Below, one piece after another: positions 13,294-60,329 of a DNA stretch of 64,000 nucleotides (position 1 is the first letter of the stretch; every line of letters starts with the position of its first letter). The notes under the pieces were generated by a model. That model was not told where the DNA came from. It made no database searches and worked only from the letters and a program-made list of their open reading frames with translations. The stretch comes from Limonium bicolor (Eukaryota > Streptophyta > Magnoliopsida > Caryophyllales > Plumbaginaceae): positions 142,592,982-142,656,981 of the forward strand of contig CM041781.1 in assembly GCA_023374045.1 (NCBI GenBank), written 5' to 3'. The position numbers were made by a program, and so were the translations under genes.

Positions 13294-13305
13294 TGGTATC
13301 AGAGC
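13294..13305 (+). other. PBS of element A (initiator tRNA-Met) within a hairpin
   Basis: TGGTATCAGAGC is complementary to the 3' end of plant initiator tRNA-Met. TCAGAGCGA is followed after AGTA by TCGCTCTGA, a perfect 9-bp stem that buries half of the PBS. Confidence 0.9.
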
Positions 13306-16675: not shown

Positions 16676-16741
16676 AAAACACTTCACGACGGCAGAACAT
16701 TATAAGCCAATGTTTAGTGTGATTGATTACGTGGGCATAAT

Positions 16742-16760
16742 CCCTTTTAAGGGGGGTAGA
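16742..16760 (+). other. first (post-pol) PPT-like tract of element A
   Basis: CCCTTTTAAGGGGGGTAGAGC, almost the terminal PPT (18021-18038), placed just after the pol remnant. B and C have the same second copy. Confidence 0.6.
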
Positions 16761-18002: not shown

Positions 18003-18038
18003 GAACTTCGAGGACGAAGTTCTTTTAAGGGGGGTAGA
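18003..18038 (+). other. pre-PPT hairpin and PPT of element A
   Basis: GAACTTCG, loop AGGA, CGAAGTTC (18003-18022), then TTTTAAGGGGGGTAGA before the LTR. The seventh stem pair is C-G here and T-A in B and C. Confidence 0.85.
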
Positions 18039-18039
18039 T

Positions 18040-34411: not shown

Positions 34412-34516
34412 GGACCGCCCCTAGGGACCGCCCCTGTGGGGAGGTCCAGGCAAATCGTGTAGGAAATTAGCTTCTGGTTGGGACCGCCCCTGGGGACCGC
34501 CCCAGAGGGGCGGTCC
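34412..34516 (+). repeat. GGACCGCCCC / GGGGCGGTCC array (C, 5' LTR)
   Basis: Two units, each with GGACCGCCCC half sites and an inverted GGGGaGGTCC or GGGGCGGTCC. The right copy is 58349-58440, lacking one half site. Confidence 0.85.
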
Positions 34517-36103: not shown

Positions 36104-36148
36104 CAGCATTCGTGCTGACCCCCTTTGGGGGCTGTTTTTACTACACAG
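36104..36148 (+). other. paired hairpins plus splice-acceptor-like site (C)
   Basis: CAGCA TTCG TGCTG, then CCCCC TTT GGGGG, then a T-rich run ending CTACACAG|GTT. The same module is in A (12881-12936), B (46825-46875), T and D. Confidence 0.6.
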
Positions 36149-36452
36149 GTTAACGTCAGGAGGCGGCCGTCACGAGAGTAAGATGGGGTACAAGTGTTAC
36201 GGGTTAAGTGTGGCCTACGAGTTGTGCATGTACACTCGTATGACAATTTGAGTTAGTAAAGATGTATAGGATGTGAGGGGACTGTAAGAAGGATATGTAC
36301 ATGGTTAAGATGTGTATGTACTAATGTTCGGTATATTCTGTCAATCAGACCGTGGCAAGGTCCTGGAGTGTATTGAATTCCGCTGTGACATTTATATATA
36401 TGTTGTTAAGTTGCAAAACCACATTTGGATTGAGATGGGGTGTTACAAAAAG

Positions 36453-41620: not shown

Positions 41621-43373
41621 TGAAATACCCCAAACCTAAGTATGCAAAGTAAACATCAAATTATGATGTAGTAAGGCCAAGATATGCGTTAGAAAGATTG
41701 GTAGACAATTTAAACCAAGGAAAACACAAGAAAATGCCTTAACGGCAATTTGGGCAAAAACATGCTCTAAGCTTGGAGTGACTTTGATTACCACCCAAAT
41801 ACCATTATAAAACTTTATTAAGATGCTAATGGGCATTTTAAATCAATTACCAAAGAAAACCAAGCTCAAAAAAAGCTTAAACACAAAATGTGCTTTAAGA
41901 CTCCTTAAAGCACCTTTTTGAGAAATTGTCTTAGAAATGAGTTTTGAGTGGCTAAATGCCCATGATTACACCTTAATCAACATGTGTACTAATTAGTATC
42001 ACATTAGGAAGCCTAAATCAATGGGAAACCAAAAATTTCACGAATATGTGCACTAATTAGTGAATAGTGCTCAATAGTCCTAGTTTTTGACTTAAGTCAA
42101 CCTTAATTAGTTAAATGGCCAAACAAGGCCTTATGTATGTTAATTAGTAAGGGGGACACGGTTTTAAGGGGATGAGTCACCATAGACTTCATCAAATAAG
42201 AAAATAAGAAGAGATAAAGTAAATAAAGTTACTATTTGCTTTTATAAAGCAAAATATCCTTTATTAGCCTACCTCTCTCCTCTCTTCTTCTTCATTTCTC
42301 TTCTTCACCAACGAGTTCCTCTTCTTCTTCTTGTTATAACCGTTCCCAACCAGCTTCATACTTGCTCCACCTTGCTTTGTCTATAACTTGCCCTTTTAAG
42401 CTCCAAATCAAAAACTAAGCATAGATTTCTCTTAGTTAGACCAAGGCCTTGCTTCCTATCTTTTCAATATTTGAAAAGCCTCATTTTGGAGCCATGGTAA
42501 ATCACCATTGAAGGGGGAAAAATAAGCTTGTAGGGTGCATTAGCTTCTCCATTCTCTTAAGGTAAAGAATATGTAAGAAAAGTTAGGTTTCCACCATTTC
42601 TCCACATTACCGAAAATTAATACTCATGGGGCTTCATTTTTATCCATTGTTCTAGCTTGATTCTATTCTCCAAGGGCTAGAGGAGGTCCTTCTTGATTCA
42701 TATCCAAGCCTACCTTGAGACTTCAAGGTAAAATATTCATTATAAGACCTTAAAACACATTTTTAACCTAGGTTTTCATTCCTTAAGGTAAGTGTATTGT
42801 TTAGCACTCATGTGAGTCATTGAATATTGATTAGAACATTGGCAAAGGAAATTTAATGAGTGTTCGAGATTCATTCAAGAAGAAGGTCTAAGGAGGAAGT
42901 AAAGATAAGCTTGGAAAAACAAGGTAAAATGCTTACCTAATGGTGGTTTAAGTTTTAAGGGGTGGTATTTAGATAAGTACTAATTTAGCTTAAAGCTTGC
43001 ATTATGTAATGGGTCATATAACCTTGGAAAAATAATTTAAACAAGCTTATGAACTTGGGATTAAGGAGCCAATGGGAATGAGTTAGTAAGATAAGTTTAA
43101 GGTGGATTTTAAGAGCATTATAACTACTATGAGATTGATGGGTGTAATTGCAGGTTGACAGCTATTACATGTGGGAAATTCAGTGTTTTAATTTATGTCA
43201 TTTAAGGGCCTAAGAGCCATGTCATTTAAGGGCCTAAGAGCCATGTCATTTAAGAGCCTTAGTGCTATGCAATTTAAGATTATTGCACTATATTGAGTTT
43301 ATTATGAATGAGTTGATTTGGGTGAGAAAATATGATGAGAAAGGACTCGATGAGTGTGAGATGATTGTATGAG
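41621..43373 (+). repeat. element C 3' LTR, left part
   Basis: First 1753 bp of the right LTR, broken by the start of element B at 43374, after GATGATTGTATGAG. Candidate leader intron 42562-43153. Confidence 0.9.
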
Positions 43374-44322
43374 TGAAATACCCCAAACCTTAATATATTG
43401 TTTAAACACTTAAACATGGTGTATCAAGACTAAAAAGAGTCTTAGAAACATTAGTAAACAAGTTTAAACAAAAGAAACACAAAATGTGCTTTAAAGTCAA
43501 TAAGAGCCAAAATGTGCTCTAAGCTTGGGATAAACTTGGTTAAGACCTAATGAACTTACCAAGACCTCATTTATACACTAATGAACATATTAAATCAATT
43601 ACCAAAGAAAACCAAGCTTGAAAACAAGTTTAAACACAAAATGTGCTTTAAGGAGTCTTAAAGCACATTTTTGAAAAATTGTCTTGTAAATGAGTTTTGA
43701 ATGGCTAGATGTCCATCATTACTCTTAAATATATATGTGTACTATATAATATCACATTTGGGTGTCTATATTAGTGGGAAATCAAAAATTTCACTTCTAT
43801 GTGCCTTGTTTTATGAATAGTAACTTTTATAAGCTATTTTGTAACATATGTTTGTATAAGTAATTAAATTGACAAACAAAGACTATATTACCCTCATTAT
43901 ATTAGGGGGCCGGTTTTCTAAGGCTTGGTGACTCACCACCCTCTTGTTAATTTTTAAGTAAATAATGATGACTAAGAAAGTACTATTTGCTTTTAAACTA
44001 CAAATATCTTCTAAAGTAAAACCAATCTTCATTCTCTCATTTCCTTTCCTTGCTCACACGGTTTCCCACCTCTCTTCTTCCTTCCTTCTTTGTTCTCTCA
44101 CGATAGAACCACTATCACCATTAGAACACAAGCTTCACCTCTTGTAAAACCTTGCTCACTTGTCCAAATCAAAAACAAACACCACCATCTTCTTCCTCTC
44201 ATCAAGCTCTTCATTCCTATCTTTTCAAAAGTCCAAGACAACCATTTCGGTGCCATGGAGTTTCTCCATTGAAGGAGCTTGAGCTTGTATTTTTACATAT
44301 TGTTACTCTCCTTGACTTCTAG

Positions 44323-44819
44323 GTAAGGAATCTCAAATAAAAACTTCATTTCCTCCTTGTTTTTGTCATGTCCGAAAATATGTATTGAAGGAGCTTTTTA
44401 TGTGACTTTGTTCTAGCTTCATTCCAACTCTTCATGGACTAGGTGGAGTCCTCTCTTGCTAGATATTCAAACTCTCTTCAAAGAGCAAGGTAAAACAACT
44501 ACATTAATGTTTTTGAAACAATGTAAAACTAGGGTTTACAATGAGATGGAGCTTATAGCTTGAATACTCATTATAATGTTTGTATATTGTTTAGAGCTTG
44601 TCAAAGAATCAAGTACTCTATCGGTTTTCTAAAGGAAACAAGAAAGAAGTTATTTTGCAAAAGAGGTAAATCTACTAACCTAATGTTGTTTTAATGCCTT
44701 AGGAGAAATGAGCTTATAAATGCTTATTAAAACTACCTAAAGAGCCAATGGTGAATGACTTAGTAAAGTGTTCTCAAGAGCTTAGTAAAAGGCATATGTG
44801 TTGTTGAGTGTATTTGCAG
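44323..44819 (+). other. candidate leader intron in element B 5' LTR
   Basis: Donor CTTCTAG|GTAAGGAAT and acceptor GTATTTGCAG|GTT, 497 nt; donor identical to that of element A. Right LTR: 54599-55089. Confidence 0.45.
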
Positions 44820-45566
44820 GTTAAAGGCAAATATATTGTGGAAATTCAGTGTTTATGATTTGTGCATTTTAAGGGCCTAAGAGCCATGTCATTTAAGGGC
44901 CTAAGTGCCATGCAATTTAAATTGTGCACTATATTGTGATGTAGTGCTTGTAGTGAAGTTTGTGTATAATAAGTACTTGATGGATTTTTAGTGTTCTTGG
45001 TTGTTTATTGGTAAAAACAATGTGTTTTGGTTTAGTAATGTTCTAGGAGAACCTATGTCGAAATTTGGTAACAAATGTGAAGTTCTAAGTGTTAAAATGG
45101 TTTGATAAGTTAAGGAGTATTTAAAATGGTTAAGTGTTGTTCTTGTGTAGGAAACATGCATTAAGGTGATTTGGATGTAACAAGGACTTAGGCATGAGCT
45201 TGAGATTTGTATGTACCAAAGTCATTTTGGGACTTAGTAAAGACTTAGGCAAACTTTGGTAAATAAGGAGAAAGTGTGAACTTGGAAAAAGAATCAAGAG
45301 TGACATAAGGAGTTGGTTGGAGAAATATTTGGATAGTAGTTATAGGTGAGAAACACCATTTAGAAACCTAGTGTAAAATGTTGTAAGTGTTAGGAATTTT
45401 GTGAAGAGATAAGTAAAGGTTTAAGGAATTAGAAAAAGAGTGTTTGTGAGTGTTTTAAGGATGGTTTAAGTTGTGTTTGAAGTGCCCAAATGAGGTTAGG
45501 GGGTACTAGGTTATATGGGGTAAAGTTTGGAGTTGAATGTGAAAAGGAAAATAAGGATTTGGGGCA

Positions 45567-45890
45567 GACCGGACTTGCGACCGGACTTGCAAGCCCGGTC
45601 GGGCCCTGTTACACTACCGAGAAATGTTTCTGGAATCGACCGGACTTGGGGGACCGGACCTACAAGTCCGGTCGGGCTTGTTTTGTGAGAGGGAAAATGT
45701 TTCTGGAATGGACCGGACATGGGACCGGACTTACAAGTCCGGTCGGTCAGTAGAAAATTTTGTACGGATTGAGTTCTGGAATCGACCGGACATGGGACCG
45801 GACCTGACAAGTCCGGTCGGGTGAATTTCCAAGGGAAAACTCTCTGGAATCGACCGGACATGGACAAGTCCGGTCGGCAAGTCCGGTCGG
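45567..45890 (+). repeat. GACCGGAC / GTCCGGTC array (B, 5' LTR)
   Basis: Five units like those of element A but with core GACCGGACnTG and CAAGTCCGGTCGG; spacers keep TTCTGGAAT. A-family GACCGAAC has become GACCGGAC on both arms. Right copy 55853-56182. Confidence 0.88.
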
Positions 45891-46824
45891 ACCAAAACTT
45901 GTAAAAAAAAAAAAAAGAAAAGAATGTGACTTATGTAGTTAACCCTAGGGTGTATAATGAAGGTAACCTAGGGTAAGATAGACATTAAAACATGTCATAC
46001 AATTATGTTAAACACTTAGTAAATTTGGAGGTTAAGTAAGTTAATTAACCGACGTTCTTGAATATGTATAGGAGTGACCTACGGAGGAAACCAAACGAGG
46101 CAAGGACCAAGGTATGGTTTTCTTGCAGTCTGTTGTCTAGCGGTTTACACCGGTTTGTGTGTTGTATGTTTTTCTGTGTGTTTACAACGTTATAAGATTT
46201 AAACATGTAATGAGTTTACAGTTGTTCATTATTGTATGTGTTGTTGTGACTCATTTCCCTTGTGTGTGTCTAACATGACTTACCACCTATTGTGTGTTGG
46301 TTGTTAAGTTCCACTATGAACTTCTAACAAGTGTTAACTGGGAAGTGAGGAATCCGGTATCCGGTCATGCATGTAAGTTAAGAGTAGATATCTGAATCAG
46401 ATTCGACTCTTATGTTGTTAAGATTGTTCTCCTTAATTTGGCGTTCGATCTCCCGCTAGCTTCTTCCAAAGCTTACCTATTCTGACTTATGATCGGTTTA
46501 GTGGGAACCTGTGTTTGTGTGGTGTGTTCGGGTCACTAAATCCGAACCATCTGTGACTTAAGTTACTCGTTCGTCTAACAGAACGGTAATGAGTGTGTTT
46601 AACGAGCTTGACATGAGAGTGAATCACTCTCTAGGCTCTTATGTTATTTGACCCTTGTGGTTTGTTATCGTGGAGTGAAAATCCACTGTGTATGTGTTGT
46701 TGAGCTATGCACATTGATGCCATGCTCCATGTTATGTTATGCTATGTATATAATTGAATGCCATGTTATAATGACAAGTAGCTGCGCGTATCCCGGTAGC
46801 CGATGGGCTGCGCGTTAGCCATAC

Positions 46825-46875
46825 CAGCCAAGGGTTGCTGACCCCCTCGGGGGATCCATATTTCTTATACTGCAG
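46825..46875 (+). other. paired hairpins plus acceptor-like site (B)
   Basis: CAGC..GCTG followed by CCCCC TC GGGGG (46842-46853) and TTTCTTATACTGCAG|GAT. Confidence 0.55.
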
Positions 46876-47227
46876 GATGAGGATCGAAGAAGCGGAGTGG
46901 CTTTAGATCCTAGGATGTGATACTTTTGTATACTTTTGGATGTTGGCCCGGGATGCGCCTGTGCTCCGTGGCGTTATATATTTGGTTGTTGATACAGTAT
47001 TACAGTGAAGGATGTTATGTAAACACTCGGTATTGTATATAATGTATTTATGGTTTAGTTTATGCTCGGGAGTCTGATCATCAGACCGGTACAATTGTTT
47101 ATTCTGCCTTGTCAACCACGTGGGTGGTTGACGGCGTTGTAGCACCGAAGCGTTAGTTACTGTTTAGTTGTTTATTCCGCTGCGATTTCATTTAGTATCA
47201 TGTGCGTATTAGGGGTGTTACAAAAAG

Positions 47228-47239
47228 TGGTATCAGAGC
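47228..47239 (+). other. PBS of element B within a 9-bp hairpin
   Basis: TGGTATCAGAGC, the initiator tRNA-Met complement. TCAGAGCGA / AGTA / TCGCTCTGA forms a perfect stem, identical to that of element A. Confidence 0.92.
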
Positions 47240-47439: not shown

Positions 47440-48112
47440 ATGTCAGGTAGACCACGCGGTAGAGGCCGCGGAAGTGGTACTAGTACTGGGGGTGACCAGG
47501 GCGAGAACACTACGGCTCAGGTTATGGCTGAGGCTGTAGCAGCCGCTGTGGCCCAGATGGTACCCCAGCTTGTAGCTGCGATCCAGCAGGGGCAGATGCC
47601 CGGAGTTCAGCCACCACCGCCACCGCCACGAGAGACCAACTGGGTCAAGGCATTGGCAGACTTGAGACCCCCTTCATTTCATGGGGAGACCGACCCACGT
47701 AAGCTGGAGGCGTACATCTCCGAGTTGGAGACCGCCTACGAGACCTTGGCTGTGCCCGCAGAGGCTAAGGTCCGTCTTGCCGCTTACTATCTGAAGGGTT
47801 CGGCACAGAATGGTGGAAGCTAGTGAGAGAGGACCGGATGGCGGATCCTCAGTTTGGTTGGAGGGAGTACACGGCTCTGCTGCGAGCCAAATACTACCCC
47901 GTGCACGTTCAGGAGGCCAAGCGCCTCGAGCTGGATAGTCTGAGGCAGGGGGACAAGGTGTCGGTTGATGAGTACTACACGCCTTCACCGGCCTTGTCCA
48001 CCTGTTACCGGACCTGGGATACTCGAACCGGGTGCTGGTAAACCGTTTCTACAACGGTCTCAGCCACCGTCTTCGCTATGGGATGGGGCCAGCTGAGTAT
48101 ACTACCTTGCAG
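47440..48112 (+). pseudogene. element B Gag, exon 1 (capsid)
   Basis: ATG at 47440 starts an Arg/Gly-rich tail (MSGRPRGRGRG), an Ala-rich stretch, a Pro run, then the capsid: NWVKALADLRPPSFHGETDP, YYLKGSAQ, EYTALLRAKYYPVHVQ, EAKRLELDSLRQGDKVSVDEYY and HLLPDLGYSN..VNRFYNGL, a normal chromovirus Gag. Two frame changes (~47812 and ~47975) interrupt it, each a small indel. It ends ...AEYTTLQ at a splice-donor consensus, and the next residues (ECYHAAAKVE) resume after a 105-nt gap. Confidence 0.85.
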
Positions 48113-48217
48113 GTAATTTAAGTAAAGAGTGATGTGAATATGTGTAGTCTACAAGTGAGTATTAATGTGAGTTTGTGAGTATGTATTGCGGGGCATGACT
48201 GATCATCCTAAATACAG
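48113..48217 (+). other. candidate intron 1 in element B gag
   Basis: CTTGCAG|GTAATTTAAG ... CTAAATACAG|GAGTGC, 105 nt, phase 0. Removing it joins TTLQ to ECYHAAAKVE, a junction typical of this Gag. CTGAT about 20 nt before the acceptor could be the branch point. Confidence 0.6.
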
Positions 48218-48478
48218 GAGTGCTATCATGCCGCTGCTAAGGTGGAGATCACCGTCCGTCTGAGGGACGAGGAGAATGCGCACAAGCGCAAGGCCACGAG
48301 CGAGGGCCAGAGTTCGCAGGGGTACGGGGGAGGAAAGAAGAAGAAGAAACCTTATCCCCAGCCCCAGAAGAGTCAGCACCAGGGTGACAAGGGCCAAGCC
48401 CAAACCACCACGCTGAGGAGCCACTGAAGCTCACATATGCTTATGCGGCGAAGCCCCTACGCTCTTACCCACCAAAGG
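48218..48478 (+). pseudogene. element B Gag, exon 2 (linker)
   Basis: ECYHAAAKVEITVRLRDEE, then a Lys-rich stretch with KKKKK and a Gln/Pro linker. A one-base frame change near 48410 moves it into LKLTYAYAAKPLRSYPPK, which ends one base before a GT donor. The charged linker lies between capsid and nucleocapsid. Confidence 0.75.
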
Positions 48479-48560
48479 GTAATTGTTTAATCTGTGTAAT
48501 AAGTTGATGTGTATGTTGATAAGTTGTGAAACAAGTACTGAGTGTGTATTGTGTTAGCAG
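48479..48560 (+). other. candidate intron 2 in element B gag
   Basis: CAAAGG|GTAATTGTTT ... GTGTTAGCAG|CTAGC, 82 nt, phase 1: the split codon G+CT restores KASTGSGPERHYYCKWC. Confidence 0.55.
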
Positions 48561-48901
48561 CTAGCACGGGCTCTGGACCGGAGCGCCACTATTACTGTAA
48601 GTGGTGCAATGGAGACCACCCCGGCAAGGACTGCAAGGGAATGAGGTGCAGTGTCGATACTGCGAGAAGTGGGGCCACCGTGACCACGAGTGTTACCGGA
48701 ACCCCAACAGCAGAGTCAACAAGCCCAAGGGGCAGTGGAAGGGTAAGGCCACAGCAGCTATTGATGGCCCGAAGACGGCTAACCAGCCACCCACCGATCA
48801 GAGGCATACTGATTCCCAGAAGGGGAAAGGGTCGGGACCTAGCAAGGCCACCCTGAATGTGGTGGACCGGTCTGAGGCGCCAGGGCCCTCTTCTAGACCA
48901 G
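48561..48901 (+). pseudogene. element B Gag, exon 3 (two zinc knuckles)
   Basis: Nucleocapsid end. Knuckle 1 (48596-48634) is C-x2-C-x3-H-x4-C (YCKWCNGDHPGKDC). Knuckle 2 (48652-48693) is C-x2-C-x4-H-x4-C (CRYCEKWGHRDHEC), reached after a one-base frame change near 48640. A polar, Lys/Pro-rich tail follows, ending SSRPGTA and a stop at 48910-48912; a GT donor two codons earlier (48902) would bypass the stop. Confidence 0.85.
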
Positions 48902-49125
48902 GTACCGCCTAAACTGTTGAATGTAATAAGTGATTGCATACCGCATTTCATGCTTATGTGTGTTAGTGAGTTCAAGTGTATTATCATGTGAGTAAGGAGT
49001 TAAAGTATAGTGTGAAAGACACCTAATTAGATAATTCTAAACTGAAAGGAACCTTCAATATATGTTATCCAATCCCACCCACACCAAACCCTGAAGAGAC
49101 CACCATCAACATCACCGACTTTCCA

Positions 49126-49787
49126 ATGGAGCAATGTCAGGTTATCCAGCCAGGTATGATACTCTTAAGTGGATACCTGACACCGGAAGCACAAGTCCAT
49201 ATCATCAGACGATGCGACGAACTTGGAGCTAAACCTGGAGGTTTCTACACACCTGAATATCCGAACGGATCAAGAATGCAATTGAAGATGATGTGCATGG
49301 GTAAGGACTGGAACCCTTACACCAAGTCATATCAAGAAGTGCGAGCGAAGATGGAGCAACGGTACCAAGTATACCTGAGGAGTTCCGTGCGGTCGTTAAT
49401 CACGCCGTGGGAATTGCTCAACAAGTTGAAACGGAATCAATTCCAAGTGTGGAAGCAGATTTGTGTATTGTGAACTTCTACCAGAAAGGTGGACGGTTAG
49501 GTTTACACCAAGATAAGGACGAGTCACCCGAGTCTCTAAGTAAGGGAGTACCCGTGGTGTCTTGGTCCATTGGTGATACCGCAGTATTTGTGTATGGCGA
49601 GCAGAAGCGTGCTGATCTCGCAAGGAAGTTAATGTTAAAGTCAGGAGACGTACTAATCATGGGTGGGCAGTCAAGGATGCTATATCATGGCATCAGGAAG
49701 ATCAAACTGAATACCGCACCGTCGGCAGTGATCAATGCCACACACATGAAACCCGGACGTTTGAATTTGACCTTCAGACAATTCTAA
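49126..49787 (+). CDS. AlkB-like 2-oxoglutarate/Fe(II) dioxygenase within the retrotransposon
   Basis: AlkB proteins remove methyl groups from nucleic acid bases by oxidation. The first part (ATG at 49126, VIQPGMILLSGYLTPEAQ, GGFYTPEY, LKMMCMGKDWNP) is the substrate-lid region seen in plant AlkB homologues of the ALKBH1 type. After a one-base frame change near 49345 comes PSIPEEFRAVVNHAV and the core: CIVNFYQKGGRLGLHQDKDE with H (49506) and D (49512), SWSIGDTAVFVYG, KSGDVLIMGGQSRMLYHG (distal H at 49686) and GRLNLTFRQF with the 2-oxoglutarate-binding Arg, stop at 49785. All iron and cosubstrate ligands are present. It lies between Gag and protease, same strand, base composition less GC-rich than gag. 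No peptide signals. The frame break may be a sequencing error. The family is well supported; the substrate is unknown. Confidence 0.9.
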
Positions 49788-49967
49788 CCTTGTATACTTT
49801 GTAATGTGTTAAGCCAGTATATGTTAAGGAGTTATGTATGTGTTAAGTTATATCAACCATGTAAACCAACAATGTTGTAAAGAGGAAGTGTTAATGAATA
49901 AAGTGGAGTTATTGAAGTATATCAACCGTGTTGTTACCCAGTACTTATTAGTTTGCCAATGAATTAG
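49788..49967 (+). other. spacer between AlkB ORF and protease
   Basis: AT-rich non-coding 180 nt ending in the acceptor-like ATTAG at 49967. Confidence 0.5.
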
Positions 49968-50242
49968 GCTGTGCACTCGGAACGGGAGGTACATTGAGTG
50001 TCTGCAATGAGGCAGAAGCCGGCAAGAGCGGCACAATCCTCACCGGTACCTTTCCAGTGAATGGCGTGGATGCATCGATCCTGTTCGACTCTGGAGCCTC
50101 ACACATTTGTTTCGCTATCTTTTGCGAAGAGGCTGGGGTTAGATGGAGAGGAGATGCCAGACTTCTTGGTCACTCTCCCATCGAAAGAGCGGATCAGGTG
50201 TACCCGCTACCACCGAGATGTCATTGTACGAATCAGAGGTGA
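49968..50242 (+). pseudogene. element B aspartic protease, N-terminal half
   Basis: Retropepsin that would cut the polyprotein. [21 protein letters not shown] carries the D-S-G active site (Asp at 50087). No ATG is needed if read from the spliced gag-pol frame. A one-base frame change near 50105 ends the useful reading, and [15 protein letters not shown] continues in the next frame. Confidence 0.85.
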
Positions 50243-51035
50243 AGAGTTCCCGATCGACCTGATAGAGTTCGACGGACTTGGATTTGATGTGATTGTCGGG
50301 ATGAACTGGTTGGAGCGGTACAAGGGCAGAATCCTGTGTGCCGAGCATCGACTGCTTCTTCGGAGTCCATCTGGGGTTACCATATCTTACCGCCAGAGGC
50401 CCAGGGAGCCTTCGACTCAGATCATCACCGCCATGGCCATGTATCGTGAGTTACGACGAGGGAGTGATGTATACCTCTGCTATGTCCAGGACATAGAGAG
50501 AGACCCTGAGTTTAGCCCAGATGTGCCGGTAGTGTCGGAGTTTCCTGATGTTCCTAAGGAACTGCCGGGCATGCCGCCAGCACGAGAGGTTGAGTTTGAG
50601 ATCGACTTAGTACCGGGCACTGGACCCATTGCGAAAGCACCTTATCGTATGGCTCCAGCAGAGATGACAGAGCTCAAGGAGCAGCTGAGAGACCTACTCG
50701 ACAAGGGCTTCATCCGCCCTAGTGTGTCACCATGGGGAGCGCCAGTCCTCTTCGTGAAGAAGAAGGACGGTAGCCTCCGCCTGTGTATTGATTATCGGGA
50801 GCTGAATGCTGTTACGGTGAAAAACCGTTACCCTTTACCACGCATCGACGATCTATTTGATCAGCTGAGGGGTGCATCAGTATTCTCCAAGATAGACTTA
50901 CGTTCCGGATACCATCAGATTGCCATCCGTGACAGTGATATCGAGAAGACAGCTTTCAGAACGAGGTATGGGCATTATGAGTTCACAGTTATGCCATTTG
51001 GCTTATCGAATGCACCAGCAAGTTCATGGACTTAA
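50100..51035 (+). CDS. element B protease C-terminus and reverse transcriptase
   Basis: Continues the protease ([30 protein letters not shown]), then the linker [17 protein letters not shown] and [74 protein letters not shown] (first catalytic Asp), [20 protein letters not shown] and SNAPA. It ends at an indel just after SNAPA. These are chromovirus RT motifs, with about 300 continuous codons. Confidence 0.92.
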
Positions 51036-51450
51036 TGAACCGCTTGTTCCAAGATCAGTTGGACAAGTCAGTGGTAGTCTTCATCGATGACATTCTTGTG
51101 TATTCTAAATCGAGGTGAGCACGAAAGCCACCTGAGAGATGTGTTACAAACTCTGAGGAGAAACCAGTTGTATGCAAAGTTTTCGAAATGTGAATTTTGG
51201 TTGAACCAAGTATCTTTCCTTGGCATGTGATTTCTGATGCCGGGATCGCTGTTGATCCGGCAAAGATAGATGCAGTGCGCACCTGGCCTAGGCCGAAGAC
51301 AGTCACTGATATCAGGAGCTTCCTCGGTCTGGCAGGATATTATAGGAGGTTTGTGAAGGACTTCTCCAGTATCTCGAAGCCGATGACTTCCTTGATGAAG
51401 AAGGATGCACCATTCGAGTGGACAGTTGACTGTGAGAGTTCTTTCGCGAG
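51020..51450 (+). pseudogene. element B RT palm/thumb
   Basis: [20 protein letters not shown] leads to the catalytic [10 protein letters not shown] box near 51085, then a frame change (a stop follows at ~51116), then FLGHVI-like text and [45 protein letters not shown]. At least three small indels lie between 51015 and 51230; the residues between them are conserved. Confidence 0.85.
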
Positions 51451-51860
51451 TCTCAAGGATGCTCTGACATCTGCACCAGTCCTGACTATACCAGACGGTC
51501 CAGATGGTTTTGAGGTCTACTGCGACGCATCAGGCAGAGGTATGGGTTGTGTATTGATGCACACGGGAAGGTCGTAGCATACGCCTCCCGTCAGCTGAAG
51601 AAGCATGAGGAGAACTACCCTACCCACGACTTAGAATTGGGTGCCATTGTCTTCGCATTGAAGATATGGCGACATTATTTGTATGGGGTAAGTGTGACAA
51701 TCTATTCTGATCATAAAAGCTTAAAGTACTTGTTCACTCAGAAAGAGTTGAACATGAGGCAAAGAAGGTGGGTTGAGTTTCTGAATGACTGATATTAATC
51801 TGCAATACAAAGAGGGTAAGGCAAATGTGGTAGCTGACGCACTGAGTCGCCGAGCACACT
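51440..51860 (+). pseudogene. element B RNase H
   Basis: [16 protein letters not shown] (Asp), [21 protein letters not shown] (Glu), [16 protein letters not shown] (Asp) and, after an indel at ~51790, YKEGKANVVADALSRRA (last Asp). One-base shifts near 51555 and 51790. Standard gypsy RNase H without an archaeal-type second domain. Confidence 0.88.
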
Positions 51861-52055
51861 CTCTCCATTCGCTAGTCTCATACTGGCTTGGTTGAAGAGG
51901 TGCGGAGTGCTCAGATGACGGATCAGTACATGCTGGAGATCCGGCAGAAGCTTATTGATGGCACATTCGAGGGTCAGAAGTACGACTTCAGACGACTCCG
52001 ATGATGACCTGATTAGGCTGAATGGCCGCTTGTGTATACCTAGGGTAGCGCTGAG
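51861..52055 (+). pseudogene. element B RNase H-integrase linker
   Basis: Frame-broken linker: LVEEVRSAQMTDQYMLEI, then KYDFRRLR and LNGRLCIPR-like text, as usual before the integrase zinc domain. Confidence 0.6.
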
Positions 52056-53038
52056 TTGAAGGAGCGCATATTGAGTGAATCCCATTGTTCTACTACTTCG
52101 ATTCACCCCGGAGCTTCAAAGATGTATAAAGGTATGAAGAGGTATTTTTGGTGGACTGGAATGAAGAAAGATGTTAGTGATTATGTATTGAGGTGTCTCA
52201 CTTGCCAGAAGGTAAGTTTGAGCACCGACGGCCTGGTGGTATGGTACAGCCAATGCCAGTGCCTGAGTGGAAGTTCCATGATATCTCCATGGACTTTGTA
52301 GTAGGGCTTCCGCCTACAAGGGGAGGTCTGAATATGATATGGGTGATAGTTGACCGACTGACCAAGGTGGCCCGATTCATTCCGATGAAGGACACTTGGA
52401 AAGTGGCAAGATTGGCAGAACTGTTTGATAAAGAGATTGTAAGACATCATGGTGTACCGAAAACGATTGTATCTGACAGAGACACCAGATTCTTATCCAG
52501 ATATTGGAAGTCCACACGAGAGGCATTGGGTACTGAATTGAAATTGAGTACAGCGTTTCACCCACAGACCGATGGTCAGAGTGAGCGCACTATTCAGACA
52601 CTTGAGGATATGCTACGTGCTTGTGCACTTGACTTTCAGACCAGCTGGATTGATAAGTTACATCTGATCGAGTTTAGTTACAACAACAGTTATCATGCTT
52701 CGATCAAGATGTCTCCCTTCCAGGCCTTGTACGGTAGACCATGCCGCACGCCATTATGCTGGGATGAGTCGAGTGAGACGGTCATTATAGGACCAGAGTA
52801 TCTTGAGCAAGTTCAGGCAGAAGTTCGCCAGATCAGGGCTAATATGAAAGCAGCTCAGGATAGACAGAAGTCGTACGCAGATGTGCGCCGACGTGACCTG
52901 GAGTTCGCCGTGGGCGATCAGGTATTTTTGAGAGTATCCCCCATGAAGGGAGTTTCGTTTTGGCCAGAAGGGCAAGTTGAGCCCAAAGTATGTGGGGCCT
53001 TATGTTGTGACGGAGCGGATCGGCCCGGTAGCCTATAG
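52056..53038 (+). CDS. element B integrase
   Basis: Zinc-binding domain [13 protein letters not shown] ... [10 protein letters not shown] (HHCC), then, after a frame change near 52200, the catalytic core: [15 protein letters not shown] (Asp), [16 protein letters not shown] (Asp) and [19 protein letters not shown] (Glu). It continues through [19 protein letters not shown] and an [20 protein letters not shown] helix to [13 protein letters not shown]. The GPY/F module ([22 protein letters not shown]) follows in another frame from 52977. The best-preserved long block is 52193-52970. Confidence 0.92.
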
Positions 53039-53329
53039 ACTAGACCTACCCGCCGAGCTGGGCAAGGTACATGATGTATTTCATGTGTCCCAGTTGAAGA
53101 AGTATATGTCTCATCCGTCTCATGTGCTTCAGCCTGAAAGGCTAACCTTAGAGCCGACCATGCGATCAGTGGAGACTCCGGTACGGATTCTGGATGCTAA
53201 GACTCGAGACACTCGCCATAAGTCCGTGAGACTGGTGAAGGTTCTTGGTCTAACCAGGACGTTGAGGAGGCCACTTGGGAGCTGGAAGACAAGATGAAGG
53301 CGAAGTACCCGTCATTGTTTACTTCTTAG
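52977..53329 (+). CDS. element B GPY/F module and C-terminal chromodomain
   Basis: [22 protein letters not shown], then [18 protein letters not shown], the usual linker, then [24 protein letters not shown] and, after a one-base change near 53245, [21 protein letters not shown] with a stop at 53327-53329. The chromodomain would direct integration to marked chromatin. The conserved aromatic place after KVL is lost at the indel. It assigns the element to chromoviruses. Confidence 0.88.
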
Positions 53330-53614: not shown

Positions 53615-53650
53615 GAACTTTGAGGACAAAGTTCTTTTAAGGGGGGTAGA
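53615..53650 (+). other. pre-PPT hairpin and PPT of element B
   Basis: GAACTTTG, loop AGGA, CAAAGTTC (53615-53634), then TTTTAAGGGGGGTAGA before the right LTR. Confidence 0.88.
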
Positions 53651-53651
53651 T

Positions 53652-56600
53652 TGAAATACCCCAAACCTTAATATATTGTTTAAACACTTAAACATGGTGT
53701 ATTAAGACTAAAAAGAGTCTTAGAAACATTAGTAAACAAATTTAAACAAAAGAAAACACAAAATGTGCTTTAAAGTCAATAAGAGCCAAAATGTGCTCTA
53801 AGCTTGGGATAAACTTGGTTAAGACCTAATGAACTTACCAAGACCTCATTTATACTAATGAACATATTAAATCAATTACCAAAGAAAACCAAGCTTGAAA
53901 ACAAGTTTAAACACAAAATGTGCTTTAAGGAGTCTTAAAGCACATTTTTGAAAAATTGTCTTGTAAATGAGTTTTGAATGGCTAGATGTCCATCATTACT
54001 CTTAAATATATATGTGTACTATATAATATCACATTTGGGTGTCTATATTAGTGGGAAATCAAAAATTTCACTTCTATGTGCCTTGTTTTATGAATAGTAA
54101 CTTTTATAAGCTATTTTGTAACATATGTTTGTATAAGTAATTAAATTGACAAACAAAGACTATATTACCCTCATTATAATTAGGGGGCCGGTTTCTAAGG
54201 CTTGGTGACTCACACCCTCTGTGTTAATTTGTTAAGTAAATAATGATGACTAAGAAAGTACTATTTGCTTTAAACTACAAATATCTTCTAAAGTAAAACC
54301 AATCTTCATTCTCTCATTTCCTTTCCTTGCTCACACGGTTTCCCACCTCTCTCTTCCTTCCTTCTTTGTTCTCTCACGATAGAACCACTATCACCATTAG
54401 AACACAAGCTTCAACCTCTTGTAAAACCTTGTTCACTTGTCCAAATCAAAAACAAACACCACCATCTTCTTCCTCTCATCAAGCTCTTCATTCCTATCTT
54501 TTCAAAAGTCCAAGACAACCATTTCGGTGCCATGGAGTTTCTCCATGAAGGAGCTTGAGCTTGTATTTTTACATATTGTTACTCTCCTTGACTTCTAGGT
54601 AAGGAATCTCAAATAAAAACTTCATTTCCTCCTTGTTTTTGTCATGTCCGAAAATATGTATTGAAGGAGCTTTTTATGTGACTTTGTTCTAGCTTCATTC
54701 CAACTCTTCATGGACTAGGTGGAGTCCTCTCTTGCTAGATATTCAAACTCTCTTCAAAGAGCAAGGTAAAACAACTACATTAATGTTTTGAAACAATGTA
54801 AAACTAGGGTTTACAATGAGATGGAGCTTATAGCTTGAATACTCATTATAATGTTTGTATATTGTTTAGAACTTGTCAAAGAATCAAGTACTCTATTGGT
54901 TTTCTAAAGGAAACAAGAAAGAAGTTATTTTGCAAAAGAGGTAAATCTACTAACCTAATGTTGTTTTAATGCCTTAGGAGAAATGAGCTTATAAATGCTT
55001 TTAAAACTACCTAAAGAGCCAATGGGAATGACTTAGTAAAGTGTTCTCAAGAGTTAGTAAAGCATATGTGTTGTTGAGTGTATTTGCAGGTTAAAGGCAA
55101 ATATATTGTGGAAATTCAGTGTTTATGATTTGTGCATTTTAAGGGCCTAAGAGCCATGTCATTTAAGGGCCTAAGTGCCATGCAATTTAAATTGTGCACT
55201 ATATTGTGATGTAGTGCCTTGTGAGTGAAGTTTGTGTATAATAAGTGCTTGATGGATTTTTAGTGTTCTTGGTTGTTTTATTGGTAAAAACAATGTGTGT
55301 TGGTTTAGTAATGTTCTAGGAGAACCTATGTCGAAATTCGGGTAACAAATGTGAAGTTCTAAGTGTTAAAATGGATTTGATAAGTTAAGGAGTATTTAAA
55401 ATGGTTAAGTGTTGTTCTTGTGTAGGAAACATGCATTAAGGTGATTTGGGGATGTAACAAGGACTTAGGCATGAGCTTGAGATTGTGGTATGTACCAAAG
55501 TCATTTTGGGATTTAGTAAAGACTTAGGCAAACTTTGGTAGATAAGGAGAAAGTGTGAACTTGGGAAAAAGAACTTCAAGAGTGACATAAGGAGTTGGTT
55601 GTGAGAAATAATGCTTAAGAGATGGTGTTAAGATAAGGAGAAACACCATTTAGAAACCTAGTGTAAAATGTTGTAAGTGTTAGGAATTTTGTGAAGAGAT
55701 AAGTAAAGGTTTAAGGAATTAGAAAAAGAGTTTGTGAGTGTTTTAAGGATGGGTTAAGTTGTGTTTGAAGTGCCCAAATGAGGTAGGGGGTACTAGGTTA
55801 TATGGGGAGAAGTTTGGAGTTGAATGTGAAAGGAAAATAAGGATTTGGGGCAGACCGGACTTGCGACCGGACTTGCAAGCCCGGTCGGGCCCTGTTACAC
55901 TACCGAGAAATGTTTCTGGAATCGACCGGACTTGGGGGACCGGACCTACAAGTCCGGTCGGGCTTGTTTTGTGAGAGGGAAAATGTTTCTGGAATGGACC
56001 GGACATAGGACCGGACTTACAAGTCCGGTCGGAGTAGTAGAAAATTTTGTACGGATTGAGTTACTGGAATCGACCGGACATGGGACCGGACCTGACAAGT
56101 CCGGTCGGGCTGAATTTCCGAAGGGGAGAAACTCTCTGGAATCGACCGGACATGGACAAGTCCGGTCGGCAAGTCCGGTCGGACCAAAACTTGTAAAAAA
56201 AAAAAAAAGAAAAGAATGTGACTTATGTAGTTAACCCTAGGGTGTATAATGAAGGTAACCTAGGGTAAGATAGACATTAAAACATGTCACACAATTATGT
56301 TAAACACTTAGTAAATTTGGAGGTTAAGTAAGTTAATTAACCGACATTCTTGAATATTGTATAGGAGTGACTTACGGAGGGAACCAAACGGGCAAGGACC
56401 AAGGTATGGTTTTTCTTGCAGTCTGTTGCCTAGCGGTTTACACCGGTTTGTGTGTTGTATGTTTTTCTGTGTGTTTACAACGTTATAAGATTTAAACATG
56501 TAATGAGTTTACAGTTGTTCATATTATTGTGATGTGTTGTTGTGACTCAATTCCCTCGTGTGTGTCTAACATGACTTACCACCTATTGTGTGTTGGGTGT

Positions 56601-57507
56601 TAAGTTCCACTATGAACTTCTAACAAGTGTTAACTGGGAAGTGAGGAATCCGGTTATCCGGTCATGCATGTAAGTTAAGAGTAGATATCTGAATCAGATT
56701 CGACTCTTATGTTGTTAAGATTGTTCTCCTTGATTTGGCGTTCGATCTCCCGCTAGCTTCTTCCAAAGCTTACCTATTCTGACTTATGATCGGTTTAGTG
56801 GGAACCTGTGTTTGTGTGGTTGTGTTCGGGTCACTAAATCCGAACCATCTGTGACTTAAGTTACTCGTTCGCCTAACAGAACGGTAATGAGTGTGTTAAC
56901 GAGCTTGACATGAGAGTGAATCACTCTCTAGGCTCTTATGTTATTTGACCCTTGTGGTTTGTTATCGTGGAGTAAAAATCCACTGTGTATGTGTTGTTGA
57001 GCTATGCACCATTGATGCCATGCTCCATGTTATGTTATGCCATGTATATAATTGAATACCATGTTATAATGACAAGTAGCTGCGCGTATCCCGGTAGCCG
57101 ATGGGCTGCGCGTTAGCCATACCAGCCAAGGGTTGCTGACCCCCTCGGGGGATCCATTTTTTTATACTGCAGGATGAGGATCGAAGAAGCGGAGTGGCTT
57201 TAGATCCTAGGATGTGATACCTTTTGTATACTTTGGATGTTGGCCCGGGATGCGCCTGTGCTCCTGTGGCGTTATATACTTTTGGTTGTTGCGCATACAG
57301 TGTTATTATGCAGTGAAGGATGTTTGTAAACACTCGGTATTGTATATAATGTATTTATGGATTAGTTTCATGCTCGGGAGTCTGATCATCAGACCGGTAC
57401 AATTGTATTTATTCTGCCTTGTCAACCACGTGGGTGGTTGACGGCGTTGTAGCACCGAAGCGTTAGTTACTGTTTAGTTGATTTATTCCGCTACGATTTC
57501 ATTTAGT
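53652..57507 (+). repeat. element B 3' LTR (last 26 bp missing)
   Basis: Near identical to 43374-47222 and breaks off at TTTAGT, where the left LTR continues ATCATGTGCG to TGTTACA. The loss also took 10 bp of the element C LTR. Confidence 0.92.
55853..56182 (+). repeat. GACCGGAC / GTCCGGTC array (B, 3' LTR)
   Basis: Five units as at 45567-45890. Confidence 0.88.
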
Positions 57508-60329
57508 CATTTGGGCATGATAATATACTAGAGGAGCTATGGCAAAATTTGAGTGGAAATAAGTTAACCAAGTTGTTCTCGAGGTTTAAAATGGCCTGGA
57601 GTTGTCTAGGATGAGCTAGAGGTTAGGAGGGTGTAAATTGTGTGCTAAGATTGTGTACTAAGGGTTAGAGTGTTCATGATTGTATTAAGGGTGAAAAAAC
57701 TAAATGTTGGGTGTAGTAATATACTAAGAAAGCCATGTCAAAATTTGGAGAGAAAACTAAATGTTTAAGGTGTTCTAAGGAGATTTAATGACTAAGGATG
57801 TTCTAGTGATCACTAAGGGTTGTTTTGGTGAAAATGGATAAACCATGGAGTCCTTGAGTACTAGGAAGACCTAGGGATGTCTAAGAGGGACTAGGGGTTA
57901 TAATGGTGAGTTTTATGCACCAAAACCATGGTTAAGGAAGCTAGAAAACTTGTACAAGGTTTGAAGGAAAAATAAGGTATAATGACTTGTAAGGATGTAA
58001 GCATGTGCTAGATTATATATAGCTTTGAGAAGTTTGAGTAAAGAAAATGGGTGTGCAAAATGATGCTTGAGGAGTAGTTAAGAAGGTGGTGAAGAAACAT
58101 AATGATTAGTTGAGGTCTTAGGCAAAGTCACAAGAGGGAAGTGTAAGGAATCAAGTGTTGAGTGTAAGAATTTTGTAAGAAATTGAGTGTCAAGTTTGGT
58201 GATTTTTGAGGAAGGTTTAGTGCATGTTTTAAGGTGTTTAAACATGTAGGAAACATGTGGAAAGATTGTGGAATGAGTGGGAAAAGATTGGGGTGAATTT
58301 GGAGTTCAAAATGAGTAGAAAAGCACTTTGGAAAATAGGTTCTGCTGTGGACCGCCCCTAGGGACCGCCCCTGTGGGGAGGTCCAGGCAAATCCTGTAGG
58401 AAATTAGCTTCTGGTTGGGACCGCCCAAGAGGGGCGGTCCAGTGCAGAGAAAAAGAAAAAAAATTGTTTTGGCTTCTAATGATGGGGGATTGAATGGTAA
58501 TGGTTTTAGATGATGTTTAGGCCTTGTTTGGTGACATGTAAAGGTCTTAAGAGGTGTAAACAAGTATGAGGTGTAATGAGAAATGATTAACTTATATGAT
58601 TAAGTTTAAATTACAATGACTTAGTGGTCCAACATTAGGGAGTGATGATGATTAGAAAGATAAGCATATAATGACTTAAGAGATTAGGGTAAGTAAATGA
58701 TTTTAAGTGTTCAAGATTAAGTTTATAAGAATTTAAGAGGTGCTAAATGGGGATTGATATGTAATGATAATATAAGGTTGTTTAAGACATGTTTGGTGAG
58801 TAACAATGATAATTAAGTGGGTGAATAAGTATAAGGTATGAGGAGAAGTGATTCACTTAAGATTAAGTTTATAAGAACTTAAGTGGTGTTAGATGGGGAT
58901 CATTAGTGACCAAGTGAGTTAAGTAAGTTAGCTTTACTGGAAAAGTAATTAACAACCTAAAATTGAATGAGTGTTTTAGGGTTTGAGAATTTGGACACCG
59001 GAGGAGAGTAAGCAACCGAAACGACCAACGGTGAACGGTACAGTTCTTCTTGTGACCTGCTTGCTAACGAGGTGTCCCTCGGCTTGTGTGCTATTTGTTT
59101 TTGTGTGCTCACTAAACAAGATAAAGCATGCAACCGGAACATTAAGTTTATTGTATTGTTGTGTGATGTTAGAAAACTAACACAACTTACTGTGAGAACT
59201 TACTAACCAACGTTTAGTAAGGAATTGAGTGAAAGAGGTTAACCAACAAACATTGTCTTGAGACTTCTACTAACTGGAACTTAACGGGGGAGTGAGGAAC
59301 ACGGGACTGACTCCGGTCATGCATGCTAAGGAATAAGGGGGTCGGTATCTAAAGCAGATCCGACTTCCGCTTAAAGACTTGTCTTCGGACTTGTTGCCTA
59401 GGGTCGGTTGCTGGCTCAGCTACATTGGACATACAGTCCAAGGTATGAGGCATTAAGATGGTGCGGTAGGATCACCTAAATCCTAAATTATAAGATAAGT
59501 TGTTTATTCAACCAATGGAGTTAATAGCTCATTGGCTAGGGTTGCTTTTGACCTGACAAAAATAAACATTGAGGTAAGATACAATCATTTCTATTTAAAG
59601 AGTGGTTTGTATTCTAAGATTAAGATAAGGTCTGAGATAAGTTGCAACCATTCCTATTTAAAGGATGGTTTGTATTATAAGACTGAGGTAAGCTACATCC
59701 ATTCCTTTTTAAAGGATGGTTGTTTTCTAAGACTAAGATAAGACTAAGATTGAGGTAAGATAAGGATGGACTAAGATTAAGAGGAAACGTAACTTAAGGA
59801 GTGAAGTAATTGACTCACTAATTAAGGGAACGCATTTAAGTCGTTCATTGTGTTTGAACTTGATTGTTCATAATTGGTTTGTTGTTTATTGCACCTTCAA
59901 TTATGTTGTGCATCTAATCAACCTCCATGCTATCGACAATTAGTCGCCGTAGCCACGTTAGCTTGGGGGCCATGAGAGGATCATACCAGCATTCGTGCTG
60001 ACCCCCTTTGGGGGCTGTTTTTACTACACAGGTGAACGTCAGGAGGCAGCCGTCACGAGAGTAAGATGGGGTACAAGCGTTACGGGTTAAGTGTGGCCTA
60101 AGAGTTGTGCATGTACACTCGTATGACAATTTGAGTTAGTAAAGATGTATAGGATGTGCGGGGACTGTAAGAAGGATATGTACATGGTTAAGATGTGTAT
60201 GAACTAATGTTCGGTATATTCTGTCAATCAGACAGTGGCAAGGTCCTGGAGTGTATTGAATTCCGCTGTGACATTTATATATATGTTGTTAAGTTGCGAA
60301 ACCATATTTGGATTGAGATGGGTGTTACA
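57508..60329 (+). repeat. element C 3' LTR, right part
   Basis: Continues the LTR interrupted at 43373; aligns with 33560-36447. Array 58349-58440, hairpin module ~59989-60031, end GGGTGTTACA. Confidence 0.9.
58349..58440 (+). repeat. GGACCGCCCC / GGGGCGGTCC array (C, 3' LTR)
   Basis: Same as 34412-34516 minus one direct half site (a 13-bp loss). Confidence 0.85.

What the first reader, a model, noticed from the sequence alone, without database searches (positions are those of the whole stretch)
48902..49967. AlkB-type dioxygenase carried by a Ty3/gypsy chromovirus between Gag and protease
The ORF has the complete set of AlkB ligands (HxD at 49506-49514, distal H at 49686, RxNxTxR ending at 49776) and the N-terminal lid region, on the same strand and between gag and pol of element B. 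AlkB domains are established in several plant RNA viruses, where they oppose RNA base methylation; I do not know of one described in an LTR retrotransposon. Inference: the element may strip m6A or m1A from its RNA (or methyl marks from its DNA) to avoid host silencing. The domain is conserved while the rest of the spacer is not, which suggests it served the element.
Basis: partly seen in the sequence, partly recalled or inferred. Interest (0 to 1): 0.96.

Follow-up and report, generated by a model that had tools for sequence, protein, structure and literature searches.

The report
Plant chromovirus carrying an AlkB demethylase
A jumping element in what is likely a plant genome carries, between its capsid and polymerase genes, a gene for an AlkB-type enzyme (broken in this copy) that would likely strip methyl marks from the element's own RNA or DNA copy; orchids have one such case already, but in another element lineage and with another type of AlkB.

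Summary
The AlkB domain is real: Pfam 2OG-FeII_Oxy_2, E 3.6e-36 for the C-terminal piece and 3.9e-6 for the N-terminal piece. It lies on the gag-pol strand of a 14.1-kb Ty3/gypsy element (LTRs 43374-47222 and 53652-57507). It is not one ORF here: a frame break splits it, and gag and pol are broken too. It is not the first AlkB in an LTR retrotransposon: PMC9289625 (2022) describes an active ALKBH5-type AlkB in Phalaenopsis Ogre/Tat elements. This case differs: an ALKBH1C/D-like AlkB, a chromovirus-type element, and a place in the gag-pol junction. It appears to belong to an element lineage: the nearest full-coverage pol relative, P0266 (69%), and an intact AlkB relative, P0121, both list a contig of 26,561 bp, so probably the same one. 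Seven AlkB sequences group apart from 58 other plant-side rows. Inference: 48902-49967 may be a GT-AG intron whose removal joins gag and protease in frame; an upstream acceptor would join gag to AlkB in frame. Splicing would then choose between Gag-AlkB (or Gag) and Gag-Pol. Activity and splicing are untested. Verdict: new variant of a known kind.

The parts
43374..47222 (+). 5' LTR of element B (TGAAATACCCC...GGGGTGTTACA)
   Evidence: 96.9% identical to the 3' LTR
47228..47239 (+). primer binding site, TGGTATCAGAGC (tRNA-Met type, recalled)
   Evidence: sequence read
47440..48901 (+). gag, with at least 3 frame switches; zinc knuckles near its end
   Evidence: tblastn of relatives such as P0327, P0330, P0337, P0320; only weak Pfam matches
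48113..48217 (+). predicted intron 1 in gag (105 nt, GTAATT...ATACAG, 64.8% AT)
   Evidence: with it removed, P0337 aligns without gap over 77 residues (E 1.8e-6) against 45 residues (E 0.008) unspliced
48479..48560 (+). possible intron 2 in gag (82 nt, GTAATT...TAGCAG, 68.3% AT)
   Evidence: not tested against relatives
48902..49967 (+). predicted intron 3 (1066 nt, GTACCG...AATTAG) that holds the AlkB gene; its removal joins gag and protease in frame
   Evidence: in phase; the only possible pair under the strictest homology limits, one of several under looser ones; protease homology starts at 49979
49049..49787 (+). AlkB coding stretch from the possible acceptor at 49047-49048; first ATG 49126; one frame break between the two pieces
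49506..49514 (+). Fe(II) ligands HxD (HQD)
49686..49688 (+). distal Fe(II) ligand His (of YHG at 49683-49691)
49758..49778 (+). 2-oxoglutarate motif RxNxTxR (RLNLTFR)
49968..53320 (+). protease-RT-RNase H-integrase-SH3/chromodomain-like pol, about 8 frame switches
53640..53651 (+). polypurine tract AGGGGGGTAGAT
   Evidence: sequence read
53652..57507 (+). 3' LTR; lacks about the last 26 bases of the 5' LTR

Best explanation
Element B is a Ty3/gypsy chromovirus-type element that carries an AlkB dioxygenase gene of the plant ALKBH1C/D kind in its gag-pol junction, and the enzyme would likely remove methyl groups from adenines in the element's own RNA or single-stranded cDNA, protecting it from methyl-dependent silencing or damage. 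The gene appears to be a lasting part of an element lineage, because a relative very likely carries both an intact AlkB and an intact pol on one contig. Its expression is predicted to go through splicing. The AlkB gene lies in a GT-AG segment (48902-49967). When this segment is removed, gag runs into protease in frame and Gag-Pol would be made. When it stays, Gag ends at the stop codon at 48910. When the upstream acceptor at 49047-49048 is used, gag runs into AlkB in frame. One donor site would thus set the ratio of Gag or Gag-AlkB to Gag-Pol. Shown: the domain, its ligands, its place, the broken frames, the AlkB grouping and the phase of the junctions. Inferred: the linkage on the relative's contig, splicing, enzyme activity, substrate and benefit.
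For: Domain and ligands. Element: LTR pair, PBS, and nesting in an LTR whose unoccupied copy is 32113-36447 (flanks joined match it at 95.9% over 611 columns). Lineage: P0266 (1095-aa pol, 69% over 95% of the protease-RT query; the 33 other rows of the 120 listed with 94% coverage or more reach 41-61%) and P0121 (273-aa AlkB) are both single ENA proteins with contig length 26,561. In that comparison the AlkB C-terminal piece is 67% identical, its N-terminal piece 49%, the main pol pieces 64%. P0001 stands for 4 member sequences. Seven AlkB sequences (the window's included) are one side of a branch in the 210-column tree, 97/86. In a neutral simulation on random codons, 1.6% of 3000 196-codon frames stayed free of stops at 65% identity, so the long open AlkB relatives point to selection. 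Intron: in-phase GT-AG, gag intron 1 supported by relatives. Intron 1 and the stretches on either side of AlkB are 64.8% and 67.3% AT, gag exons 40.6%.
Against: Only one copy was seen in DNA, and it is broken. The relatives' DNA could not be fetched, so the shared contig rests on equal contig length, and no dN/dS was possible; a protein database also favours open frames. The N-terminal AlkB piece is less conserved (49%) than pol. The donor of intron 3 (CAG|GTACCG) is weak by the consensus that I recall. The phase argument is weak alone: gag homology to 48894 rests on one row (P0320) of the 8 relatives tested; with looser limits 2 of 7, 4 of 14 or 9 of 28 GT-AG pairs are in phase, about the one-third expected by chance, and another in-phase donor, AGG|GTAAGG at 48743, looks stronger. 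No RNA data. Dropping two long rows lowers the support of the AlkB group to 88/70, and with 126 columns it is 83/41. No activity test; the substrate is read from family resemblance only. The Pfam Chromo match in P0266 is weak (E 0.0031, under the cut-off).
Confidence: 0.6

Rival explanations
1. A chance retrocopy: a host ALKBH1 transcript was copied into this one element, like gene transduction, and has decayed since without serving the element.
For: Only one DNA copy seen, with a frame break. [quoted passage not shown]
Against: The AlkB group lies outside the sampled host genes, and P0005, P0121 and P0003 are open over 184-273 residues at 63-78% identity to P0001. P0001 has 4 member sequences.
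Confidence: 0.12
2. Repair rather than evasion: the enzyme removes alkylation damage (1-methyladenine, 3-methylcytosine) from the element's RNA genome or cDNA, as proposed for plant RNA viruses, with no link to host silencing.
For: AlkB chains (E. coli, recalled) match better than ALKBH1 chains: 82.5 against 46.8 bits for P0001. HQDKDE is identical in the AlkB chain 2fd8. PMC9289625 (discussion) mentions the repair idea for viral AlkBs.
Against: Nothing here separates damage repair from removal of regulatory marks.
Confidence: 0.25
3. The enzyme acts on chromatin: like rice ALKBH1 it removes 6mA or keeps Polycomb off, and so keeps integrated copies transcribed.
For: The nearest solved structure is 5xeg (rice ALKBH1, recalled). 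The abstract of PMC10469495 reports rice ALKBH1 acting on 6mA in R-loop regions and against PRC2 binding.
Against: An element's protein is made after transcription, so it would have to work on other copies or later rounds; nothing here shows that it enters the nucleus.
Confidence: 0.15
4. The 48902-49967 segment is not an intron: AlkB is an independent third gene between gag and pol, read by internal initiation or from its own promoter.
For: The donor GTACCG is weak by recalled consensus, and the phase match is near what chance gives under loose limits. The first ATG of AlkB (49126) is followed by an open frame. The orchid AlkB is a separate ORF2 (PMC9289625).
Against: Under the strictest limits the only GT and AG are in phase; the flanks of AlkB are AT-rich; a shorter intron-like gap in gag fits relatives only when removed.
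Confidence: 0.35

Closest known systems
Phalaenopsis Ogre/Tat-type Gypsy_Pa_2799 elements with paALKBH5-like ORF2 (PMC9289625; methods, results and discussion read)
   Same: A Ty3/gypsy plant element with an extra AlkB (PF13532) ORF, proposed to demethylate its own or cellular RNA; the orchid protein is active in vitro.
   Different: There the RT is Tat/Ogre with dual RNase H, the PBS is tRNA-Arg type, the element is 25.5 kb, gag and pol are one ORF with AlkB in a separate ORF2, and the enzyme is ALKBH5-type. Here it is chromovirus-type, tRNA-Met-type PBS (recalled), 14.1 kb, AlkB in the gag-pol junction, ALKBH1C/D-like.
Plant ALKBH1C/ALKBH1D genes and 5xeg (rice ALKBH1, recalled)
   Same: About 55% identity over the catalytic half to the Arabidopsis and Oryza rows P0187 and P0145; same FDIC-like start region, same HxD...H and RLNLTFR motifs.
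   Different: The element-type proteins group apart from 58 other rows. In the alignment all 7 have KR(M/A)D and 6 of 7 have YHG (P0004 has HHG), where the four plant rows shown have FHG and other letters.
Intron-bearing plant LTR elements: Ogre and EVADE (PMC12786077, passages)
   Same: A spliceable intron used to make subgenomic RNAs.
   Different: No extra enzyme gene inside the intron is mentioned in the passages seen.
Fungal DNA transposons with TET/JBP dioxygenases (PMC12730594, abstract)
   Same: A 2-oxoglutarate dioxygenase captured by a mobile element, proposed to counter methylation silencing.
   Different: TET/JBP on 5-methylcytosine, DNA transposons, fungi.
AlkB domains of Alpha- and Betaflexiviridae and Closteroviridae (mentioned in PMC9289625)
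   Same: AlkB carried by a parasite with an RNA stage.
   Different: RNA viruses; AlkB inside the replicase (recalled).

Membership tests
AlkB / 2OG-FeII_Oxy_2 (PF13532) | significant profile match over the domain | tested here: met
   E 3.6e-36 (profile 82-194) and 3.9e-6 (profile 1-71, under the curated cut-off)
AlkB / 2OG-FeII_Oxy_2 (PF13532) | HxD...H and RxNxTxR | tested here: met
AlkB / 2OG-FeII_Oxy_2 (PF13532) | one open reading frame in this copy | tested here: not met
   intact relatives P0001, P0121 exist
AlkB / 2OG-FeII_Oxy_2 (PF13532) | demethylase activity | not testable with these tools
   needs an enzyme assay
plant ALKBH1C/D | nearest named and solved relatives are of ALKBH1 type | tested here: met
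   rows named ALKBH1C, ALKBH1D, abh1, 6mA demethylase; 5xeg
plant ALKBH1C/D | nested inside the host gene tree | tested here: inconclusive
   outside; but holding it with the land-plant rows is not rejected (p-AU 0.41 with all, 0.208 without P0008 and P0020)
orchid Gypsy_Pa_2799 AlkB elements | ALKBH5-type AlkB | tested here: not met
   none of the 21 PDB matches (E 0.001 or better) is named ALKBH5; AlkB and ALKBH1 chains are. That ALKBH5 chains are in the PDB is recalled
orchid Gypsy_Pa_2799 AlkB elements | Tat/Ogre pol with dual RNase H | tested here: not met
   on the relative P0266, not the window: one RNase H region (458-582)
orchid Gypsy_Pa_2799 AlkB elements | gag-pol as one ORF, with AlkB in a separate ORF2 | tested here: not met
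   AlkB at 49126-49787 lies between gag and protease
Ty3/gypsy chromovirus | order protease-RT-RNase H-integrase, LTRs, PBS | tested here: met
Ty3/gypsy chromovirus | chromodomain after integrase | tested here: inconclusive
   P0266: Chromo E 0.0031, 17.8 bits, cut-off 25.1; in the window the frame switches there
intron-bearing LTR element | GT-AG segment whose removal restores the frame | tested here: met
   intron 1; intron 3; phase match not rare by chance under loose limits
intron-bearing LTR element | spliced transcripts | not testable with these tools
   no RNA data

The most novel reading that the evidence does not exclude
A chromovirus lineage independently captured a deep-branching AlkB of the ALKBH1 kind and built it into an intron at the gag-pol boundary, so that alternative splicing from one donor toggles between a Gag-linked demethylase, which would go into the particle with Gag and clean the packaged RNA, and Gag-Pol: a retroelement with its own splicing-controlled eraser.
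Probability: 0.27. Interest if true: 0.82.

Novelty: new variant of a known kind. Interest (0 to 1): 0.6.

Why it matters
If true, plant Ty3/gypsy elements have taken up AlkB erasers at least twice, in separate lineages and from separate AlkB subfamilies. That is what one expects if methyl marks on nucleic acid really restrain retrotransposons. The differing enzyme types make the question of which mark matters (m6A on RNA, 1-methyladenine, 6mA on single-stranded DNA) directly testable. An eraser placed in a gag-pol intron would also be a new way to tie an accessory enzyme to the Gag/Pol ratio.

Tried and rejected
Rejected: that AlkB in an LTR retrotransposon is unprecedented (one search found PMC9289625). 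Rejected: a chance profile match. Disfavoured: a lone retrocopy of a host gene. Rejected as an argument: few lesions in AlkB as a sign of selection in this copy; AlkB has 1 frame break in about 0.66 kb, pol about 8 in 3.35 kb, gag at least 3 in about 1.3 kb, which does not separate them. Led nowhere: tblastn of the AlkB piece in phages (no match); P0001 in viral contigs (no relative); AlkB, gag and pol pieces against the rest of the window (no second AlkB; only another element's pol on the minus strand); the internal region of element A (shares only the PBS end, a short 3' stretch and a 21-base match). No structure was predicted, because a solved relative aligns over the whole of P0001 (5xeg, E 2.5e-71). 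Placement of the AlkB group below or above the algal rows is undecided. Nothing on an ALKBH1-type AlkB in a chromovirus turned up in the searches (open-licence PMC papers only; listings and abstract starts seen; the papers opened are named in the full report).

Full report
Observation. The stretch 48902-49967 holds an AlkB domain in two frames. The piece 49407-49784 matches Pfam 2OG-FeII_Oxy_2 with E 3.6e-36 over profile positions 82-194, and 49126-49470 matches positions 1-71 with E 3.9e-6. The ligands are at 49506-49514 (HQD), 49686-49688 (His) and 49758-49778 (RLNLTFR). The two ORFs are 49126-49473 and 49407-49787, so the domain is complete in letters but not in frame.

The element. LTRs lie at 43374-47222 and 53652-57507; BLAST gives 96.9% identity and K80 is 0.019 over 3806 sites. 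TGGTATCAGAGC follows the 5' LTR at 47228, and a polypurine tract precedes the 3' LTR. The 3' LTR lacks about its last 26 bases. Element B sits inside an LTR of another element: the two 300-base flanks joined match 33260-33870 at 95.9% over 611 columns, so B, AlkB included, is one discrete insertion. Gag pieces are weak by Pfam and clear by tblastn with relatives; protease-RT, RNase H, integrase and SH3_Tf2-1 pieces were found by Pfam. Of the 120 pol relatives listed, I gave 8 to tblastn.

Broken frames. Against these relatives pol switches frame about 8 times and gag at least 3 times; AlkB is broken once. The LTR pair of B has 49 indels and 71 substitutions over 3803 sites, that of element A 44 and 67. 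Three other repeat pairs in the window have 4 and 57, 3 and 48, 8 and 45. The indel excess is thus limited to A and B among the five pairs compared; faulty polishing of a high-copy repeat is possible, and the broken state should not be over-read.

Relatives of the AlkB. The first protein search gave 357 proteins, best 120 listed; the second, with P0001, gave 2557, best 120 listed. Nearest to the window piece are unnamed proteins: P0001 (75%, 210 aa, 4 members, contig 26,621), P0002, P0003, P0004, P0005; P0121 (273 aa, contig 26,561) came with the second search. Named plant proteins follow at 60% or less. The PDB searches gave 21 chains each: 5xeg first (rice ALKBH1, recalled), then AlkB chains (E. 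coli, recalled), then ALKBH1 chains; none named ALKBH5.

Trees. I chose 70 of the 224 listed proteins plus the window's C-terminal piece. Six rows served as outgroup; one of them (P0071) is named, an Acidobacteria record. With 126 columns the seven element-type sequences are one side of a branch, 83/41; with 210 columns 97/86; with two long rows dropped 88/70, bootstrap not settled. The other 58 rows, of which the named ones are plants and two green algae, are set apart from them with 97/90 and, as 56 rows, 98/98. AU tests do not reject the group as kin of the land-plant rows alone (p 0.41) or of these without P0008, a fern, and P0020, taken as ginkgo from its label (p 0.208). So the group is distinct, but the date and donor of the capture are open. 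Mosses and lycophytes were not knowingly sampled.

Linkage in a relative. The third protein search used protease-RT (7972 candidates scored, 120 listed). P0266 has 69% identity over 95% of the query. The 33 other listed rows with 94% coverage or more have 41-61%; some rows are higher over shorter parts, up to 83% over 30%. By E-value P0266 is only 41st; I take it that long proteins with repeated domains sum to more. P0266 and P0121 each stand for one sequence on one ENA contig of 26,561 bp. I infer, and did not see, that it is the same contig. No listed pol row has the contig lengths of P0001 (26,621), P0004 (23,054) or P0005 (9,956), so their linkage to pol is not shown. P0266 starts at the protease, whereas relatives such as P0327 and P0337 have gag and pol in one protein, which fits an interrupted gag-pol junction there too. 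Between window and P0121/P0266 the AlkB C-terminal piece is 67% identical, its N-terminal piece 49%, the three main pol pieces 64% and the other pol pieces 50-80%.

Selection. No DNA of relatives was available, so no dN/dS. In 3000 neutral runs on random 196-codon frames brought to 65% identity, 1.6% had no stop, counting substitutions only. That P0001, P0121 and P0003 are all open argues for selection, with the caveat that a protein database favours open frames.

The intron reading. The gag stop is at 48910; the last stop upstream in the protease frame is at 49949. Protease homology starts at 49979 in 2 of the 8 relatives (P0330, P0320) and later in others. Gag homology reaches 48894 in one of them (P0320, weak) and 48732-48751 in P0337 and P0327. 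With the strictest limits there is one GT (48902) and one AG (49966), and they are in phase. With gag limits of 48751 or 48732 the pair is 1 of 5 or one of 2 of 7 in phase; with still looser protease limits 4 of 14 and 9 of 28 are in phase, near the one-third of chance, and 48743 (AGG|GTAAGG) is an in-phase donor with a stronger look. Two AGs (49029, 49047) would join gag to the AlkB frame, both in phase with the donor 48902; the second falls just before the TFNICYP start that matches P0121's PFDICYP. In gag, removing 48113-48217 lets P0337 align without gap over 77 residues (E 1.8e-6) where the unspliced sequence gives 45 (E 0.008). Of 120 relatives 11 gave a hit to the spliced piece at an E limit of 10, and 6 of them crossed the junction, two of these with E under 1e-5. 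For intron 3, at the same limit, 26 of 120 relatives match the gag tail, 59 the protease head and 20 both; only P0337, P0320 and P0327 have both matches at E 0.017 or better, in order, with 44, 54 and 42 residues between them. Introns 1 and 2 are 64.8% and 68.3% AT, the stretches around AlkB 67.3%, gag exons 40.6%. All this is sequence evidence; no transcript was seen.

Mechanism. The family (Fe(II)/2-oxoglutarate, HxD...H, RxNxTxR) removes methyl groups by oxidation (established knowledge). ALKBH1 is said to act on 6mA preferentially in single-stranded or unpaired DNA (abstract of PMC10469495). For an element whose life cycle runs through RNA and single-stranded cDNA, these are the natural substrates (inference). 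I commit to removal of methyl groups from adenines of the element's own RNA or first-strand cDNA, made from an unspliced or alternatively spliced transcript; damage repair and chromatin action remain rivals.

Known work. PMC9289625 (parts 2-4 of 7 and the discussion read) is the direct precedent; it screened 121 angiosperm genomes and found the domain only in two Phalaenopsis species. A review (PMC12786077, passages) repeats the orchid case and names Ogre and EVADE as notable intron-bearing plant elements. PMC7264820 (passages) says that extra ORFs lie most often between pol and the 3' LTR. PMC11963269 (passages) holds 'demethylase' only in its reference list, which cites the orchid paper. PMC6317226 (passages) gives the chromovirus and PBS background. 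PMC12730594 (abstract) is a parallel in fungal DNA transposons. The label tRNA-Met for the PBS and a likeness to the Tekay/Del lineage are recalled, not tested.

Host. Named matches to the AlkB and pol pieces are mostly plants, so a plant host is inferred.

Noticed in passing
8664-22673: Element A: LTRs 97.5% alike, about 74-77% alike to B's LTR over the main pieces, PBS region 93% alike, internal 4.7 kb without gag, pol or AlkB match: a likely non-autonomous relative of B.
   Followed up: partly
43374-47222 and 53652-57507; 8664-13288 and 18040-22673: The LTR pairs of A and B have about 0.7 indels per substitution, three other repeat pairs in the window 0.06-0.18: faulty polishing of a high-copy repeat or a real indel bias.
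   Followed up: partly
48113-48217 and 48479-48560: Two further short GT-AG, AT-rich gaps in gag; an LTR retrotransposon with three introns would itself be unusual.
   Followed up: partly
outside the window: proteins P0036, P0142, P0136, P0021, P0048, P0146, P0026, P0032, P0034: A clade (100/100) of 183-256-residue ALKBH1-type proteins beside grass rows, some clusters with 42, 28 and 15 members (the three named rows are from Paspalum): possibly a second mobile or amplified ALKBH1. Context not seen.
   Followed up: no
32113-36447 and 41925-43373 + 57508-60329: Two copies of the LTR of another element; B is nested in the second, and about 10 bases at the junction are missing with the end of B's 3' LTR.
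   Followed up: partly
3918-8476, minus strand: Another Ty3/gypsy-like element with long open pol pieces.
   Followed up: no
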